From NCBI RefSeq assembly GCF_004745595.1, contig NZ_SRLH01000006.1:62001-126000 (forward strand): a stretch of DNA of 64,000 nucleotides, given 5' to 3'. Position 1 is the stretch's first letter. Each line of letters opens with the position of its first letter. The position numbers were made by a program, and so were the translations under genes. The stretch comes from Flavobacterium humi. GTDB taxonomy: Bacteria > Bacteroidota > Bacteroidia > Flavobacteriales > Flavobacteriaceae. The notes under the pieces were generated by a model. It searched no databases and was not told the DNA's origin. It was given only the letters and a program-made list of their open reading frames with translations. Shown here in pieces: positions 56,901 through 64,000 of this stretch.

Positions 56901-56930
56901 AAAAAACCCACTCGTTTGAGTGGGTTTTTT
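56901..56930. terminator. strong bidirectional terminator at the island edge
   Basis: A perfect 13-bp stem (arms AAAAAACCCACTC and GAGTGGGTTTTTT) with a GTTT loop. No gene ends nearby on the plus strand. On the minus strand it lies right behind a 12-bp tRNA 3'-end match (56936-56947), as expected for the terminator of a tRNA gene whose body has been displaced. Confidence 0.85.
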
Positions 56931-56935
56931 AACAG

Positions 56936-56947
56936 TGGTGCCTCCAG
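56936..56947 (-). other. putative attachment-site core (tRNA 3'-end remnant)
   Basis: On the minus strand the sequence is CTGGAGGCACCA, which reads as the last T-stem bases (CTGG), a seven-base acceptor strand (AGGCACC) and A of a tRNA. I recall flavobacterial tRNA-Phe genes ending this way, but identity is unverified. The rest of the tRNA is missing; the bases beyond have no T-loop. Tyrosine recombinases often integrate at tRNA 3' ends, and one is encoded 190 bp away. Confidence 0.5.
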
Positions 56948-57114
56948 TACTAAAGTAGTATTTTATCTAAACTATTGGAAACATTACTTAAATGCCATTA
57001 TTGGTAGGGTTTTACAAAGTTTTATAAAAATGGTCACTTATCAAAATATATCAAAAATAGCCATATTTTAATAGTTTTTTATACCGTATATTCTACCGTA
57101 ATGTAAAAAATGAG

Positions 57115-57122
57115 TATCTTTG
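57115..57122 (+). promoter_or_regulatory. -7 box upstream of the integrase start at 57140
   Basis: TATCTTTG matches TAnnTTTG and ends 17 bp before the ATG at 57140. It lies inside the reading frame if the earlier ATG at 57110 were used, which favours the later start. Confidence 0.35.
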
Positions 57123-57139
57123 AGTATCAAAAAAGTGAT

Positions 57140-58591
57140 ATGAAAAAGCCAGTTATAAATTACGTACTCGAATCCAAGGCAAAAAATCCGAATGAGCGAA
57201 CAAAACCCGAACTCATTATCGCAATGGTTCACGCTGGGTTTATTACTCAAATTGATAATCAAATAAAACACGAGCGTTTTAAAGTATCGCTTGAAACAAC
57301 GATAAAACCAAAAAATTTCGGTTTGATTAAAGATAACTTCCGATTCAATGAAGACGTATTTGCAAACTTTTCAAGACAAAATAAAGGCGTTAAAACCGCA
57401 ATGCAGATTTTTGAAACCAAAGTTGACGAATTATATAGTAACTATTTGATAAACGACATTCAACCGACAGCTAAGCAGTTTAAAACAGATTTGTTAATTC
57501 AGCTGGGGCGTAAACAACGGGAGCAAAAGAAAACTTTCACGATATTAGCTTACCTCAACGATAAGATAAGTTTGTTTGAATCGTTGAAAGGTAGCGGGCG
57601 TAAAGATGAAATTGACGAAAATTCAATCAAAGTGTATCGAACTTTAAAAGTATATTTAGAGCGTTATGAACTTGTTAAGCAAATTCAATTAACATTTGAG
57701 AATTTTGACGAATCAACATACTGGGAGTTTTGGAACATTCAGGATGAAATTTTGAGGGGCAAAATAAGCATTCCAAAAAAAGTAGGTGAACGCAAAATAG
57801 CTGTCCAAGAAAACGGCTTTCTGATGAGTTCAATTAATAAGTATCAAAAAACATTAATGCGTTTATTGCGTTTGGCAATTGTTGACGGTATAAACGTCAA
57901 TCTGAATGTTAATAATACTAATCTCATTGTTACTAAAAGCCCAGCGAGCAAAGATATATACGTAAGCGAAAGCGATTTGGTTAAAATTTGGAATTATGAG
58001 CCCACCACCACCGAAATGCTATTAGCTAAAGATTACCTTATGTTAGCCAGTTTAACGGGAATGCGCTACGAAAGCATGGAAGTGGCTAATTTGGAACAGA
58101 TTGAAACGTATAAGGACGGCAGTTATAATTTCAGTTACATTCATTCCAAACAAAACAAAACGGAGACTGAGTGCTATATACCATTGTTTAATCCAGTAAT
58201 GGAAATCTTAAAGCGATACGGAAATAAGTTTCCTGTACTACCAGCTAATCAAATCGTAAATGAAAATATTAAAATGTTGTTCGGATTGGCGGGAATAAAC
58301 GCAATGCAGACAATAACTAACGTTACGTATAAATCAGGCGTGATAATTGAAAGCAAGCCCGCTAATGAAGTTATAAGCACACATGATTGTCGTAAAAGTT
58401 TCATAACCAACTTGTTTTTAGCTGGCGGAGCTGAAAATATTGTAATGGGAGTAACGCATCCCGATAAAAAACCAATGCACGCAATGGCTGGGGTTTATAA
58501 CAAATCAACTCTTTTGGATAAAGCTAAGCAGTTTTATGATGAGGTTAATCGTGTTCAAAGAGAAAAACAAAGTGAACTATATAAATTCTAA
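57140..58591 (+). CDS. tyrosine recombinase / site-specific integrase
   Basis: 483 residues from the ATG at 57140; an in-frame ATG at 57110 would add ten residues but places the -7 box inside the gene. The C-terminal catalytic domain has the Arg in LTGMRYESME (R309), a Lys in HSKQNK (337 or 340), H415-x-x-R418 in THDCRKS, H440 in THPDKKP and the nucleophile Y453 in GVYNKS, so the active site is complete. The N-terminal 270 residues are the arm- and core-binding part. Orientation and position next to a tRNA-end remnant indicate that it integrated the island carrying the type I restriction system. Confidence 0.93.
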   Translation: MKKPVINYVLESKAKNPNERTKPELIIAMVHAGFITQIDNQIKHERFKVSLETTIKPKNFGLIKDNFRFNEDVFANFSRQNKGVKTAMQIFETKVDELYSNYLINDIQPTAKQFKTDLLIQLGRKQREQKKTFTILAYLNDKISLFESLKGSGRKDEIDENSIKVYRTLKVYLERYELVKQIQLTFENFDESTYWEFWNIQDEILRGKISIPKKVGERKIAVQENGFLMSSINKYQKTLMRLLRLAIVDGINVNLNVNNTNLIVTKSPASKDIYVSESDLVKIWNYEPTTTEMLLAKDYLMLASLTGMRYESMEVANLEQIETYKDGSYNFSYIHSKQNKTETECYIPLFNPVMEILKRYGNKFPVLPANQIVNENIKMLFGLAGINAMQTITNVTYKSGVIIESKPANEVISTHDCRKSFITNLFLAGGAENIVMGVTHPDKKPMHAMAGVYNKSTLLDKAKQFYDEVNRVQREKQSELYKF

Positions 58592-58770: not shown

Positions 58771-60402
58771 TTATATTGGATTCAATCCTAACTCTTTCAA
58801 ATATTCGTTGTGTTTATCTGTGTTTGTTTTTATACTTTTATTTATTTCAGTTAGTTTAATGTTTACATCTTTCAAGTCAATTTGTATCTCGTCTTCTGAG
58901 GTACTCACATATCTTGAAATGTTTAGATTGTAGTCGTTCTTTTTGATTTCGTCCATTGAAACTCTACGAGAATAACGCTCTCTTTCATTTCTGAATTTGT
59001 ACGTTTCTACTATATTGTCCAAATGTTTTTCAGAAAGTGTATTTTGTCGTTTTCCTTTTTCAAATTGTTCTCCTGCATTGATAAACAATACATCATCTTT
59101 CTTCTTACATCTTTTCAAAATCAAAATGCAAACAGGAATACCTGTCGAGTAAAATAAATTGGAAGGTAAACCAATTACAGTGTCAATATAGTTTTCTTTT
59201 AAAAGTTTTTCCCTTATTCTTGATTCTGCACCACTACGGAATAAAACTCCGTGAGGTAAAATAATTGCCATAGTTCCTTCTTTAGCTAAAAAGTGCATTC
59301 CGTGTAAAAGGAAAGCAAAGTCGGCTGCTGATTTGGGTGCTAAACCATATCCTTTGAAGCGAAAATCTTCTGCTAAAGTATCATTTGGTTCCCAACGCAA
59401 ACTAAATGGCGGATTGGCTACAATGGCATCAAACTCAATTTTTTTACTCGGATTCATTTCATTGAGTAAATCCCATTGATTGAGCAAAGTGTCACCGTGG
59501 AATATCTCAAACTCGGAATCTTTCATACCGTGCAAAAGCATATTCATTCGGGCAAGATTGTAGGTTGTTATATTCTTTTCTTGCCCATAAATTTTACCGA
59601 TATTTCCTTTAGCTTTCTTTAGTTGGGTTCTTACATTTAAAAGCAAAGAACCCGAACCACAAGTGAAATCCAAAACCTTGTTCAGTTTAGACTTATAACC
59701 AGTTGTTGGGTCGTGGGAATCTAACAATACAATTCGTGAAAGAATGGTTGAAATTTGTTGAGGCGTATAAAATTCTCCTGCCTTTTTTCCTGAACCTGCT
59801 GCAAACTTCCCAATCAAATATTCATAAGCATCACCAAGCGTGTCGGTATCGGTCGAAAAGTCTGCAATTCCTTCAGCTATTTTGGTTATTATCTTACAGA
59901 GTTTATCGTTTCTTTCTTTTTCAGTTTTACCAAGCTTTTCCGAATTCAGATTAATTTCAGAGAACAAGCCCTTAAAAGTGCTATCAAACGATTCATTTTC
60001 TATGTATCGAAACCCATCTCCTAAAGTTTTTAATAATTCACCTTTTTGAGTACGGGCTAACTCGGTAATGTTACTCCACAAAAATTTTGGTTTGATTACA
60101 TAATGGACTTTTTTACGCATTTGTTCCTCAAACTCATCAATGTCTGCTTTATTTTTTTTGTACCAAAGTTCCAAAGGTGGTGGCACTAAAAAGTCTGCTC
60201 TTAAATCTTTTGACGGACTTGGTGGGTAATCTTTGCCTAATTCTTTTTTTGCGGCTTCTTCGTAATTGAAAGACAAATAACGAAGGAACAGAAATGAAAG
60301 CATATAATCACGGAAATCATCCGCATTCATTACGCCTCTCAAATCATTGGCAATGTCCCAAAGAGTATCGCCTAATTTTTTATTATTTTCTTTTTGTGTC
60401 AT
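58771..60402 (-). CDS. hsdM: type I restriction-modification system, DNA methyltransferase subunit
   Basis: HsdM methylates adenine (N6) in the target sequence together with HsdS. The 543 residues contain an N-terminal helical domain (LGDTLWDIANDLRG to about 170), the SAM motif VLDFTCGSGSLLLN at about 243-256, and the catalytic NPPF at 330-333 in AIVANPPFSLRW. YTPQQI near residue 212 is the usual HsdM signature. It is last in the operon (hsdR, hsdS, nuclease candidate, hsdM), 13 bp after the ATPase gene. Confidence 0.96.
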   Translation of the reverse strand: MTQKENNKKLGDTLWDIANDLRGVMNADDFRDYMLSFLFLRYLSFNYEEAAKKELGKDYPPSPSKDLRADFLVPPPLELWYKKNKADIDEFEEQMRKKVHYVIKPKFLWSNITELARTQKGELLKTLGDGFRYIENESFDSTFKGLFSEINLNSEKLGKTEKERNDKLCKIITKIAEGIADFSTDTDTLGDAYEYLIGKFAAGSGKKAGEFYTPQQISTILSRIVLLDSHDPTTGYKSKLNKVLDFTCGSGSLLLNVRTQLKKAKGNIGKIYGQEKNITTYNLARMNMLLHGMKDSEFEIFHGDTLLNQWDLLNEMNPSKKIEFDAIVANPPFSLRWEPNDTLAEDFRFKGYGLAPKSAADFAFLLHGMHFLAKEGTMAIILPHGVLFRSGAESRIREKLLKENYIDTVIGLPSNLFYSTGIPVCILILKRCKKKDDVLFINAGEQFEKGKRQNTLSEKHLDNIVETYKFRNERERYSRRVSMDEIKKNDYNLNISRYVSTSEDEIQIDLKDVNIKLTEINKSIKTNTDKHNEYLKELGLNPI

Positions 60403-60415
60403 TGACTTGTCTTTT

Positions 60416-61552
60416 TTAAGCGAATATTTCAGGTAATTGGAATTCGTATTTTCCCAAAAATGCAGTTAATATTCTGTTGAATAATTCTTTGTTGTCTTCG
60501 TTCATTACTACAGGTTGATAGATGGAATACTTACCGTGACTTAACAAATTTAAAGCTCGTGAAAAAAGCATTTCATCTTCAACTCCTGTGATGCAACTTG
60601 AAAAGTCGTCATAGCCAAAAAAAGTTGATGTTTTTTCTAAAATAGCTCTCAACATATTAAAATGATAGGTATTTACTATGCCATTTTCTGAAACCTTTTT
60701 TAATTCGGTTAATATAGCAACGTGGTGAAAAAATGGTGTTTCATCTGTAGCTCTCAAAATGTAACCGTCCGCACCGTTTTTATGCAGGAAATGGCTTTTG
60801 TGCTCAATCTTCTTTAGCTCATTATACATTACGTTGTAGAATAATGAATGATGCGAAGAAATAACCACTTTTACTTTGTCTTTTCCCTTTTTCAAAAGTT
60901 TGGCTAAATCACTTGCTACACCAATGGCGTTGTTATCGTCTAATGATGAAATAGGGTCGTCTATGTAAATGTTTTTTACCCAGTTGTACGGACCATTACC
61001 ATCATCATCAATGGCAAGTTCAATAAGGACAAGAAAAATACACCAAATAAAAATATTCTCTTCACCTCTTGAAACCTTAATGTCTGGTTGCATAATGTAT
61101 TCAGGTTCACCAGTATCAGGTTTGAATTTTGGATTTTTTACTTGTTTTTTAAATGAAATAGTTTTTTTGATAAAATCAAGGTCAAAATTGAAGTCAGCGT
61201 AACGTTCTAAATAACCAAATATTTTTTCATCTAAAGCCAACTCCTTAAAACCATTAAAAAATGCAGACTGGGTATTTATAATTAAATGCCTTTCAATGTC
61301 ATTATCTAGGTCGTTATTCCAATGAAAAAGGTCTTCTGTAAAAGCATTATAATAAAGTGTGTCAGTTTCAGGATTTTTCTTTCTCTGCTTGCTGATATTT
61401 TTGAACTCCATTGAAAGACGTGTTTTGCCCGTTCCATTATAGGCATACAGCAAAACAAAGTGATGATTGTTTAAATCGTCTCTTAGCCTGACAGCCACAT
61501 TTTTTAATGTTTTGTACTTATATATTTTTTTTTGACCGCTCATTTTATTCAA
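60416..61552 (-). CDS. PrrC-like anticodon nuclease candidate (ABC-type ATPase)
   Basis: 378 residues. The N-terminal ATPase has a Walker A-like AYNGTGKT (37-44), an ABC-like signature VSRGEE (160-165), Walker B NIYIDDPISSLDD (194-206) and H-loop SSHH (H234). The C-terminal domain contains R302-x3-E306 and H339, close in spacing to the Arg-Glu-His triad (320, 324, 356) I recall for E. coli PrrC, a tRNA-Lys anticodon nuclease held inactive by a type I restriction enzyme. The gene lies inside the hsd operon, overlapping hsdS by 8 bp. No zinc-hook coiled coil is present, so it is PrrC-like and not RloC-like. A start three codons later (61543) is also possible. Target is inferred. Confidence 0.7.
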   Translation of the reverse strand: MNKMSGQKKIYKYKTLKNVAVRLRDDLNNHHFVLLYAYNGTGKTRLSMEFKNISKQRKKNPETDTLYYNAFTEDLFHWNNDLDNDIERHLIINTQSAFFNGFKELALDEKIFGYLERYADFNFDLDFIKKTISFKKQVKNPKFKPDTGEPEYIMQPDIKVSRGEENIFIWCIFLVLIELAIDDDGNGPYNWVKNIYIDDPISSLDDNNAIGVASDLAKLLKKGKDKVKVVISSHHSLFYNVMYNELKKIEHKSHFLHKNGADGYILRATDETPFFHHVAILTELKKVSENGIVNTYHFNMLRAILEKTSTFFGYDDFSSCITGVEDEMLFSRALNLLSHGKYSIYQPVVMNEDNKELFNRILTAFLGKYEFQLPEIFA

Positions 61553-62843
61553 TCATTTTCGGAAATAAACTCTGCATCAATCCACTTTTGTGATGCTTCA
61601 ACTCTTCGATTCTTTCCGTTTGAGCAGTGATTACTTCATCTAAAGCAGAAAGACAAGAAGCTATTTTTTGTTGCTCTTTTATATTGGGGGGAAACCAAAC
61701 TTTGTAATTTTTAATTTGCTGTGCACTAATGTGAGGTATTCCAGAACTCGTATTTACTGAATCTACATATGTTCTAAAATTATCTGAAATGAAAAATTGA
61801 TATATAAAACTAAAATCTGCTTTTTTATTTGCTCTGATTCTTGCTACTCTTTGAATTAAAATTGCATTTTCATCAGACTTACCTACAAGAGCAACATTTT
61901 TCCCAACTTTAGAACCGTCCATTGCAATAACAATGTCATTTTCTTTAACAAAATATCTCTTTAATTTTTCTAATGTTCCTAAATAGTATTTGTCAATTTC
62001 TTTTGAATGTCTGATATATCCTTCTGTTATATTGATGCCTCTTAATATTGGCATTCCAGATTCATCATCACATATTTCCTCACCTTTAAGTGCTATTCCA
62101 GAAAATAAATCAATAAAATCATCCACCTCTTTCAACATCCAAGCACCATCTTTCTCAAACTCCTTGAACCGATATTTCGGCACTTTCTTTCCCTCTTGCG
62201 GAAAAAGGTTTTGCATCAAGCCTTTTTTGTGGTCTTTGAGTAAATCCAATTTTTGAGTTTGACCTGCAATTACTTCGTCTAAAGACGAAAGGCAGGATGC
62301 GATTTTTTGTTGTTCTTGTGGGTTTGGAATTGGAACTTTTAGGTTGAGAAACGCAACTTTTGACAAGTTGTATCTAGTACTCCCTTGTGCTATTGCCGAA
62401 ACAGACGTTCTATAAATTGGACTATGAAATAAGTATCGGGAAAATTGTGGTTGCGTTTTTTCTAATTCAAATGGTCTTAGGGCAAAGCAAAAACTATTCA
62501 AATAAATATCCTCTTTAGGAGAATCAACAAGCACAGATGCAAAGCCAACTTCATCTGGAGTTTCTGAAGAAGTAGTATATAAAATGTCACCTTTCTGGAG
62601 TGTGTTTTGGTTCTCATTTTCATCAATTTCAACTTTACCGCACTTTTGGTAATCTATAATGGAGTTGTCGAAAACTTGCTTGTAAGTTACATATGATTTA
62701 CCTGTACCAAAATCTTCACCACTTTTACCAGTTAGCCCATTTATAGTTATGCCAAGCTCAGAAATTTTCTTTTCTGCCCAATCTCCATCATTCTCAAAGT
62801 CAGGAAAACGCAATTCAGGTGTTAATTTTTTCTTCTTACTCAT
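61545..62843 (-). CDS. hsdS: type I restriction-modification system, specificity subunit
   Basis: HsdS determines the bipartite DNA sequence recognised by the complex. The 432 residues hold two target-recognition domains (about 1-170 and 215-390), each followed by a conserved coiled segment: QKIASCLSSLDEVIAGQT and QKIASCLSALDEVITAQT, then HKKGLMQNLFPQ and HKSGLMQSLFPK. The two halves are internal repeats, as usual. The gene overlaps hsdR by 8 bp and the nuclease candidate by 8 bp. Confidence 0.95.
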   Translation of the reverse strand: MSKKKKLTPELRFPDFENDGDWAEKKISELGITINGLTGKSGEDFGTGKSYVTYKQVFDNSIIDYQKCGKVEIDENENQNTLQKGDILYTTSSETPDEVGFASVLVDSPKEDIYLNSFCFALRPFELEKTQPQFSRYLFHSPIYRTSVSAIAQGSTRYNLSKVAFLNLKVPIPNPQEQQKIASCLSSLDEVIAGQTQKLDLLKDHKKGLMQNLFPQEGKKVPKYRFKEFEKDGAWMLKEVDDFIDLFSGIALKGEEICDDESGMPILRGINITEGYIRHSKEIDKYYLGTLEKLKRYFVKENDIVIAMDGSKVGKNVALVGKSDENAILIQRVARIRANKKADFSFIYQFFISDNFRTYVDSVNTSSGIPHISAQQIKNYKVWFPPNIKEQQKIASCLSALDEVITAQTERIEELKHHKSGLMQSLFPKMIE

Positions 62844-64000
62844 ACGCTGCTAATCCTGAAATTTCACGCCCTTGGGCAAGTTTTTTTAATTGTGGTACTA
62901 AATCTTCCATCAATGCCAACTCTTTTACTCTGCGTTCTTTCCAACTCAAATCCAATGGTGCTAAAAGGTCGGTTAGTTTTTCACCGTCAAAAATCATTCG
63001 GCTCGTTATCTTTTCAATAAATTTTTTTAAGTCAGTCGTTTGCAAGCCGTGTTTGTTAGCAATTGTCGCTATTTCCTTATTGTACTTATCGTCTTTAAAT
63101 TTGTCATAGCCCTTGCGAAGCATTTCAACATCTTGTCCGCTTTCCCAATCTAAACCATTGATATATTCAGTTAAATCTTCTTCTTCATCCATTAAATTGG
63201 AATTGGATTTCAACAAGCTAATCACTTGTGATTTAGTCATTTTTTGCTTGGCAGGTTTCTTTTGTGTGCTGTCGGCAATCAAACTCATTATGTAATCGTA
63301 ATCTATTACGGCAGAAGCAAACAACACAAATTCAAAATCAAGTTGCTGAATTTCAGGCGGTGCATTTTCACCTTCTTTTTGTTGTATTTCTCGTAACTGC
63401 TTGGCTGTTTCTATGTACGAACTACGGAACTCTTGCAAAGATTCTTCGGGCAAAATAGCTTCAATTTTTGCTTTTTGTTTTTCGTCTATGTCCGTGTATT
63501 GGTCAAGCTGTGTTTTTAACCTTTGTACTTCTTTGAAATTTTTCACAAAGGCAATTCTTGCTGCATCACCTTTTAAATTGTAAACTTCCTGTGGTTCGTT
63601 TACCAAATTATGCTCCTGCATAAATACACCCAATTTCTCAACCGCTTCTTTGTACTTGTCAATCATTACAGGTGCAGGGTCAACCAACCAAATTTCTCTT
63701 GCTTTTCCTTTGTCTTCTCCTGAGAACAATGCAATGGCTTGATTTACGGAATCCTGTTGCGAACGGAAATCTAAAATATTTCCATAAGGTTTGGTGTCGT
63801 TCAATACACGGTTTGTTCTTGAAAATGCCTGAATCAATCCGTGGTATTTCAAATTCTTGTCCACATACAAGGTATTCAAGTATTTGCTATCGAAACCCGT
63901 GAGCAACATATCTACTACTATGGTAATGTCAATTTTATTCTCGTGTGAATAATCTTTGTTGCTGTATTGTTGGTCTTTGATTCGTTTTTGTACATCTTGA
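62836..64000 (-). CDS. hsdR: type I restriction-modification system, restriction subunit (partial, 5' part outside window)
   Basis: The visible 387 residues are the C-terminal part of HsdR, which translocates and cuts unmodified DNA. The frame stays open to the right edge, reading IDITIVVDMLLTGFDSKY and then SF2 helicase motif VI GLIQAFSRTNR; after these comes the helical C-terminal domain (DPAPVMIDKYKEAVEKL, LSWKERRVKELALMEDL) that binds the methylase core. The nuclease and the first helicase motifs lie beyond the window, so activity cannot be judged. It is the first visible gene of the operon. Confidence 0.95.
   Translation of the reverse strand, partial: QDVQKRIKDQQYSNKDYSHENKIDITIVVDMLLTGFDSKYLNTLYVDKNLKYHGLIQAFSRTNRVLNDTKPYGNILDFRSQQDSVNQAIALFSGEDKGKAREIWLVDPAPVMIDKYKEAVEKLGVFMQEHNLVNEPQEVYNLKGDAARIAFVKNFKEVQRLKTQLDQYTDIDEKQKAKIEAILPEESLQEFRSSYIETAKQLREIQQKEGENAPPEIQQLDFEFVLFASAVIDYDYIMSLIADSTQKKPAKQKMTKSQVISLLKSNSNLMDEEEDLTEYINGLDWESGQDVEMLRKGYDKFKDDKYNKEIATIANKHGLQTTDLKKFIEKITSRMIFDGEKLTDLLAPLDLSWKERRVKELALMEDLVPQLKKLAQGREISGLAAYE

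What the first reader, a model, noticed from the sequence alone, without database searches (positions are those of the whole stretch)
60416..61552. Candidate PrrC-like anticodon nuclease embedded in an hsd operon
Seen: ABC-type ATPase motifs plus R302-x3-E306 and H339, close in spacing to the PrrC triad, in a gene overlapping hsdS. Known: E. coli PrrC is silenced by its type I enzyme and cuts tRNA-Lys when a phage inhibits the enzyme, aborting infection. The Walker A begins with Ala where Gly is usual, and the target tRNA is unknown.
Basis: partly seen in the sequence, partly recalled or inferred. Interest (0 to 1): 0.6.

Follow-up and report, generated by a model that had tools for sequence, protein, structure and literature searches.

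The report
A PrrC-type tRNA-cutting phage-defence gene
This is a clear relative of the known bacterial PrrC toxin, which sits inside a DNA-restriction operon and probably cuts a transfer RNA to stop protein synthesis when a phage disables that restriction enzyme; it is a further member of a known kind rather than something new.

Summary
On the minus strand, hsdR-hsdS-prrC-hsdM lie in one row. The third gene matches PADLOC's PrrC model over its whole length (E 3.1e-132), and its last 114 residues alone match at 1.4e-36. It aligns at 36% identity with an E. coli PrrC reference whose R320, E324 and H356 fall on R302, E306 and H339. The triad is intact in 122 of 122 family rows. Three corrections: the Walker A alanine is a family trait (121 of 122 rows); the start is probably ATG at 61543, so the gene abuts hsdS rather than overlapping it; R-x3-E-x30-52-H alone is common by chance (6 of 43 long ORFs here). 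The operon order is R-S-C-M, unlike EcoprrI's M-S-C-R. PrrC170, published with the R-S-C-M order, blocks phages T1 and T7 and targets tRNA-Lys. The operon is cargo of a ~13.8 kb element integrated at tRNA-Phe. The tRNA cut by this protein, its silencing and its trigger are inferred, not shown. Verdict: a new member of a known kind.

The parts
60416..61543 (-). prrC: PrrC-family ABC-ATPase/anticodon nuclease, 375 aa from ATG (378 aa from TTG at 61552)
   Evidence: ORF; PADLOC PrrC E 3.1e-132 over residues 6-372; AAA_13 9.3e-13; 36.1% identity to E. coli PrrC reference over 332 positions
61421..61444 (-). Walker A AYNGTGKT (residues 37-44, TTG numbering)
   Evidence: AFNGTGKT in E. coli PrrC
61055..61072 (-). 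ABC signature-like motif SRGEEN (161-166)
60935..60970 (-). Walker B/D-loop IYIDDPISSLDD (195-206)
   Evidence: D198, D199, P200, S203, D205 in 122 of 122 rows
60635..60649 (-). catalytic R302 and E306 (R-x3-E)
   Evidence: 122 of 122 rows; aligned with R320 and E324 of E. coli PrrC
60536..60538 (-). catalytic H339
   Evidence: 122 of 122 rows; aligned with H356 of E. coli PrrC
58771..60402 (-). hsdM, type I methylase subunit, 13 bases downstream of prrC
   Evidence: TIGR00497 1.2e-119; N6_Mtase 1.6e-106
61545..62843 (-). hsdS, specificity subunit
   Evidence: Methylase_S 5.3e-33; PADLOC Specificity_I 7.1e-86
62836..64000 (-). hsdR, 3' part; the whole gene is 998 aa and runs on to the equivalent of 65832 outside the window (L098 11837-14833)
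   Evidence: EcoR124_C 9.9e-64; full ORF
57110..58591 (+). tyrosine-recombinase-like integrase of the element that carries the operon (493 aa)
   Evidence: Phage_integrase E 0.0012, 19.1 bits, below Pfam's cut-off of 27.1
56927..56948 (.). left attachment-site repeat; the second copy (21 of 22 bases) overlaps the 3' end of tRNA-Phe at L098 19717-19738 (window-equivalent 70717-70738)

Best explanation
A PrrC-family anticodon nuclease with an abortive-infection role. Shown by sequence and model: an N-terminal Rad50/SMC-like ABC ATPase fused to a C-terminal helical domain with the R-E-H triad, encoded between hsdS and hsdM of one type I restriction-modification operon. Inferred: the Hsd complex binds PrrC and keeps it silent. 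When a phage blocks the restriction enzyme (or changes the nucleotide pool), the ATPase domain lets the nuclease cut a host tRNA in its anticodon loop, most likely tRNA-Lys(UUU) 5' of the wobble base, and translation stops. Also supported by sequence: the operon is cargo of an element of about 13.8 kb integrated at the 3' end of tRNA-Phe.
For: Whole-length PADLOC PrrC match, E 3.1e-132; C-terminal 114 aa alone 1.4e-36. Alignment at 36.1% identity over 332 positions with a 396-aa E. coli 'anticodon nuclease' in an M-S-C-R operon, whose R320, E324 and H356 agree with the numbering in PMC2610378 (passages read). R302, E306 and H339 in 122 of 122 rows. All 80 loci from the scan of genome contigs carry at least one hsd gene within the fetched stretch; 62 of 80 show hsdR and hsdS upstream and hsdM downstream. 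The window's own genome has 1 strong N6_Mtase match, this hsdM; the only other lies in a 1776-aa frame, not examined. The model's residues 13-267 match a Rad50 head at Z 12.9. PrrC170, published with order HsdR, HsdS, PrrC, HsdM and 35% identical to EcoPrrC, blocks T1 and T7 and targets tRNA-Lys (PMC11555353, passages read). The own genome has two tRNA-Lys(UUU) genes with loop CTTTTAA.
Against: No activity, tRNA or phage was tested. The segment aligned with EcoPrrC 284-295 differs in most R-S-C-M rows: F for S293 in 84 of 94 and H for Y294 in 84 of 94. The target could therefore differ. The Hsd partner is only 36% (HsdM) and 32% (HsdR) identical to that of the E. coli M-S-C-R operon, so silencing by the EcoprrI mechanism is an extrapolation. 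The fold of the C-domain alone is not a strong HEPN match: best HEPN row Z 6.1, below an unrelated row at 6.7.
Confidence: 0.85

Rival explanations
1. PrrC-like protein of the same architecture whose target is not tRNA-Lys but another tRNA, because the tRNA-recognition segment of the R-S-C-M rows has diverged.
For: 28 of 28 M-S-C-R rows have F, S, Y, H at positions 292-295 (E. coli numbering); R-S-C-M rows have F at 293 in 84 of 94 and H at 294 in 84 of 94. Overexpressed E. coli PrrC also cuts tRNAs with similar anticodons (PMC2610378, passages read).
Against: PrrC170, which has the R-S-C-M operon order, was reported to target tRNA-Lys (PMC11555353). An acidic residue is kept at the position aligned with D287 (E271 here; D or E in 84 of 94 R-S-C-M rows). 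The lack of residues 289-290 in 94 of 94 R-S-C-M rows does not set them apart, since 9 of 28 M-S-C-R rows lack them too.
Confidence: 0.11
2. RloC-type anticodon nuclease, or a general AAA_13 ATPase, rather than PrrC.
For: Pfam names it only AAA_13; RloC shares the triad and the ABC motifs (PMC2610378); weak matches to PADLOC PDC-S06 models of 727-862 positions.
Against: 375-378 aa falls within the published PrrC range (341-416) and outside that of RloC (658-897). The sequence has no CxxC hook and no room for a long coiled-coil insert. The PrrC model outscores the next one by 392 bits. It is hsd-linked, whereas RloC rarely is.
Confidence: 0.03
3. Decayed or inactive prrC copy carried along by the hsd operon.
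For: No activity data.
Against: Open frame, all motifs and the triad intact; 89-90% identical to an uninterrupted copy in Chryseobacterium piscicola.
Confidence: 0.03

Closest known systems
PrrC170 (carbapenem-resistant Klebsiella quasipneumoniae isolate 170; PMC11555353)
   Same: Operon order HsdR, HsdS, PrrC, HsdM as here; 35% identity to EcoPrrC reported there, 36% measured here for the window protein.
   Different: A K. quasipneumoniae plasmid relative (L137) is 52% identical, but it has two extra genes between hsdR and hsdS and may not be the same locus.
E. coli PrrC / EcoprrI (prr locus), through the reference L136
   Same: Whole-length homology, triad, Walker A with Ala, hsd linkage.
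   Different: 36% identity; operon order M-S-C-R there and R-S-C-M here; HsdM 36% and HsdR 32% identical; segment 284-295 differs.
Homologue in Chryseobacterium piscicola DSM 21068 (L018)
   Same: 89-90% identical PrrC, same R-S-C-M order.
   Different: DNA similarity is confined to three blocks of 73-79% within hsdR to hsdM; no match in the rest of the 17 kb compared.
RloC
   Same: R-x3-E ... H triad after an ABC ATPase (PMC2610378, passages read).
   Different: Twice the size, with a coiled-coil/zinc-hook insert that is absent here.

Membership tests
PrrC (type I R-M-linked anticodon nuclease) | Whole-length sequence similarity to PrrC | tested here: met
   PADLOC PDLC02360 E 3.1e-132, residues 6-372; 36.1% identity to E. 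coli PrrC reference L136
PrrC (type I R-M-linked anticodon nuclease) | R-x3-E ... H triad in the C-terminal third | tested here: met
   R302, E306, H339 aligned with R320, E324, H356; 122 of 122 rows
PrrC (type I R-M-linked anticodon nuclease) | Size 341-416 aa, ABC ATPase without zinc-hook insert | tested here: met
   375-378 aa, no CxxC; size range from PMC2610378
PrrC (type I R-M-linked anticodon nuclease) | Gene inside a type I hsd operon | tested here: met
   hsdR, hsdS, hsdM adjacent and co-directional; at least one hsd gene in the fetched stretch of 80 of 80 scanned homologues
PrrC (type I R-M-linked anticodon nuclease) | Cuts tRNA-Lys in the anticodon loop 5' of the wobble base | not testable with these tools
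   Needs expression; only the presence of tRNA-Lys(UUU) in the genome was checked
PrrC (type I R-M-linked anticodon nuclease) | Silenced by the Hsd complex and released by an antirestriction factor | not testable with these tools
   Published for E. coli PrrC (PMC2610378; PMC12707154); not tested for this one
PrrC, M-S-C-R (EcoprrI) branch | Operon order hsdM-hsdS-prrC-hsdR and place on that branch of the tree | tested here: not met
   Order is R-S-C-M; one branch, support 99, parts 94 R-S-C-M rows from 28 M-S-C-R rows
HEPN superfamily | HEPN-like helical fold with catalytic R and H | tested here: inconclusive
   C-domain model (pLDDT 83.3): 7 of the first 13 rows are named HEPN or AbiV, Z 4.8-6.1, mixed with unrelated rows at Z up to 6.7; Foldseek alone nothing at E up to 0.001. 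PMC3710099 classes PrrC as HEPN
RloC | 658-897 aa with coiled-coil/CxxC zinc-hook insert | tested here: not met
   378 aa, no CxxC

The most novel reading that the evidence does not exclude
The R-S-C-M PrrC proteins, the Bacteroidota ones among them, are tied to a different class of type I enzyme and have a re-built tRNA-recognition segment (FFHH in place of FSYH in most rows), and therefore a different tRNA target or a different release signal from the E. coli prototype.
Probability: 0.12. Interest if true: 0.5.

Novelty: new member of a known kind. Interest (0 to 1): 0.25.

Why it matters
It adds a Bacteroidota member to the PrrC guardian systems, which detect that a restriction enzyme has been disabled. 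The two operon orders, each with its own Hsd partners, make a natural comparison for mapping which PrrC residues bind the Hsd complex and which read the tRNA. The tRNA-Phe element offers a way by which the operon can move between families.

Tried and rejected
The bare motif as evidence: R-x3-E-x30-52-H occurs in 6 of 43 long open frames of the window, so it was set aside in favour of homology.

An anomalous Walker A: rejected, since Ala is in 121 of 122 rows.

RloC: rejected by size, lack of a CxxC hook and relative scores.

Sequence search of the PDB: no match for the single protein up to E 1; three matches at E 0.33-0.63 for the profile, Rad50 among them. Foldseek with the full model gave 3 matches at E up to 0.001, with TM-scores to the query of 0.27-0.35, one of them Rad50; retron and PtuA rows lower in that list were read as general ABC-ATPase resemblance. 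Foldseek with the C-domain alone gave nothing at E up to 0.001. NCBIfam gave no match over its cut-off for the protein.

Phage-borne copies: no tblastn match at E up to 1e-5 in 50,697 phage records. The plasmid collection had 113 records with a match; six places were opened.

Rows left out before the 122-row counts: L001-L003, L098 and L105 were not given to (own-genome stretches and a second copy of L064's genome); L014-L017 gave no match at its cut-off; L044, L054, L058, L091 (under 330 aa: cut at a contig end or interrupted) and L133 (488 aa) were dropped, with 4 exact duplicates. Rows were found by similarity, so 122 of 122 is partly selection. The R-S-C-M label takes in rows for which not every gene was seen (6 'R>C>M', 11 'S>C>M', 4 'SR>C>', 1 'S>C>', 1 '>C>M' and others), and 3 of the 28 M-S-C-R rows are 'S>C>R'. 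On the midpoint-rooted drawing the R-S-C-M rows are not one clade: 6 short rows lie outside the rest.

M1 conservation as evidence for the ATG start: set aside, since I chose ATG starts myself.

Full report
What is there. The minus-strand ORF 60416-61552 encodes 378 aa from a TTG. The ATG at codon 4 (61543) lies one base after the hsdS stop and is the more likely start: annotated starts of relatives align with or near it (L103). The conserved M1 does not count, because I chose ATG starts for those rows. The gene is flanked, on the same strand, by hsdS (61545-62843) and hsdM (58771-60402). hsdR (998 aa; 62836 to the equivalent of 65832 outside the window) precedes hsdS. The order of transcription is hsdR-hsdS-prrC-hsdM. 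The own genome has 2 N6_Mtase matches: this hsdM and one in a 1776-aa frame that was not examined.

Family. Pfam gives AAA_13 (9.3e-13). NCBIfam gives no match over its cut-off. PADLOC gives PrrC at 3.1e-132 over residues 6-372, and the C-terminal 114 residues alone give 1.4e-36. A reference for E. coli PrrC was found as a 396-aa protein annotated 'anticodon nuclease' in an hsdM-hsdS-X-hsdR operon on an IncY plasmid (L136). Its R320, E324 and H356 fit the numbering in PMC2610378 (passages read), and its D287 fits a residue that I recall from the PrrC literature (no call). That it equals the prototype is inferred from length, numbering and order. The window protein is 36.1% identical to it over 332 aligned positions, with the triad in register and Walker A AFNGTGKT there against AYNGTGKT here.

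Conservation. In 122 aligned rows, R302, E306 and H339 are present in 122 of 122, Ala at Walker A position 1 in 121 of 122, and G42 and K43 in 122 of 122. Rows were found by similarity, so this shows constraint within the family, not independent discovery. The bare triad pattern occurs in 6 of 43 long open frames of the window.

Linkage. Of the 80 loci kept from one scan of genome contigs (225 confirmed relatives, best 80 kept), 80 have at least one hsd gene in the fetched stretch. 69 have hsdS within 400 bases upstream on the same strand, 61 have hsdM within 400 bases downstream, 73 have hsdR, and 62 show hsdR and hsdS upstream with hsdM downstream. hsdM was never seen upstream and hsdR never downstream. 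In 14 loci hsdM lies 605-2700 bases downstream. The 5 loci without hsdM all have under 900 bases of contig left. In four loci (L033, L035, L037, L038) hsdS lies downstream of hsdM instead.

Two operon orders. On a tree of 122 rows (quick method), operon order needs a single change: 94 R-S-C-M rows on one side of a branch and 28 M-S-C-R rows on the other, support 99, 0 of 500 shuffles as low. The window lies in a branch of 88 R-S-C-M rows (support 98); 6 short R-S-C-M rows fall outside it when the tree is rooted at the midpoint, so R-S-C-M need not be one clade. For many rows from whole genomes only about 1.5 kb of flank was held, so some labels rest on part of the operon. The Hsd proteins follow suit: the window's HsdM is 69-71% identical to those of R-S-C-M operons in E. 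coli (L099), Klebsiella (L137) and Parabacteroides (L103) and its HsdR 68-69% to those of L099 and L103, against 36-37% and 32% for the M-S-C-R operons L136 and L138; HsdS is only 29-33% identical even within the R-S-C-M set.

The recognition segment. At positions 292-295 (E. coli numbering) 28 of 28 M-S-C-R rows have F, S, Y, H; R-S-C-M rows have F at 293 in 84 of 94 and H at 294 in 84 of 94. Residues 289-290 are missing in 94 of 94 R-S-C-M rows, but also in 9 of 28 M-S-C-R rows, so the length difference does not part the two. An acidic residue at 287 is kept in 84 of 94 R-S-C-M rows. That this segment reads the tRNA is recalled; PMC2610378 says only that such a region has been described in PrrC.

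Published relative. PrrC170 of K. quasipneumoniae was cloned as HsdR, HsdS, PrrC, HsdM. It is 35% identical to EcoPrrC, protects against T1 and T7, arrests growth when expressed alone, and targets tRNA-Lys by tRNA sequencing (PMC11555353, passages read). By operon order it belongs with the window's kind; its sequence was not compared. This makes tRNA-Lys the best guess for the target here. The host has two tRNA-Lys(UUU) genes with loop CTTTTAA (30 of the 42 tRNA matches were fetched and scanned). PMC12707154 describes PrrC as a guardian that senses inhibition of the restriction enzyme (passages read).

Structure. The full model (pLDDT 78.3, pTM 0.68) matches Rad50 and SMC ATPase heads; the top row is 4ncj_C with Z 12.9, rmsd 3.3, 202 aligned, model residues 13-267. 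The C-domain alone (pLDDT 83.3) is a bundle of helices; R299 and E303 lie in the second and H336 follows the fourth (ATG numbering). Seven of the first 13 rows of the second-look alignment are named HEPN or AbiV (Z 4.8-6.1), mixed with unrelated bundles and below an ESCRT row at Z 6.7, so this is compatible with HEPN but not proof. PMC3710099 places PrrC in HEPN (passages read).

Mobility. A 22-base direct repeat (21 of 22) lies at 56927-56948 and at the 3' end of tRNA-Phe 13,790 bases away. An integrase-like gene sits just inside the left end (57110-58591; Pfam E 0.0012, below cut-off). Of 61 genomes of the genus, 13 matched the left flank, the own genome included; in 7 relatives the match ended at the repeat, and 6 of these were fetched. 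In 5 of the 6 a tRNA-Phe lies within 2-8 bases of the matched terminator; in the sixth (L176) the fetched match is about 380 bases off, but another match of that genome ends just before tRNA-Phe. That is the empty arrangement. An exact 13-base piece of the repeat was found in 2 of these 6 loci. G+C is 34.5% inside and 41.6% in the left flank; the right flank was not measured. In a sample of 296 genomes of the order, the closest homologues are in another family (89% and 74%), while same-genus genomes give at best 33%, which fits horizontal transfer.

How common. PrrC matches at E up to 1e-30 occur in 19 of 296 genomes of the phylum, the own genome included. In the order of Samsonia 71 of 394 genomes match at E up to 0.001, 30 of them at 1e-30 or better; many of the weaker ones lie in frames of 700 aa or more. 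In E. coli, 83 of 5,426 genomes match a DNA query from L071, each over at most part of it and at 60-80% identity; three that I opened have hsdR and hsdS upstream and hsdM downstream.

Verdict. The protein is a member of the PrrC family by every feature that sequence could test here; activity, target and trigger are inferred. Literature searches covered open papers only, and papers were read in passages; I make no claim that the split by operon order is unpublished.

Noticed in passing
window 56927 to window-equivalent 70738 (L098 5927-19738): Integrated element of about 13.8 kb at tRNA-Phe with integrase-like gene, low G+C and the hsd-prrC operon as cargo.
   Followed up: partly
L098 15225-16853 (-): 542-aa ORF upstream of hsdR inside the element, with no Pfam match listed at E up to 1.
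   Followed up: no
L137 973-4760 and L101 928-4712: In plasmid-borne relatives of Klebsiella and E. coli, two genes lie between hsdR and hsdS of the prrC operon; in L137 they are annotated as a TrlF-family ATPase and an RNA-binding-domain protein.
   Followed up: no
L033, L035, L037, L038: Variant operon order with hsdS downstream of hsdM (R-C-M-S).
   Followed up: no
L102 4176-5606: An extra 'hypothetical protein' gene sits between hsdS and the prrC homologue in one E. coli genome.
   Followed up: no
L011, L012, L013, L132, L134, L135: A separate branch of shorter PrrC proteins (344-357 aa) with hsdS before and hsdM after; two of the six are in the window's own genus.
   Followed up: partly
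L136: The E. coli M-S-C-R prrC reference lies on an IncY plasmid next to genes annotated as terminase and late promoter-activating protein, so perhaps on a phage-plasmid.
   Followed up: no
L002 (G000:C7:240826-241371): A second, 776-aa frame in the same genome with a weak AAA_13 match, perhaps RloC-like.
   Followed up: no
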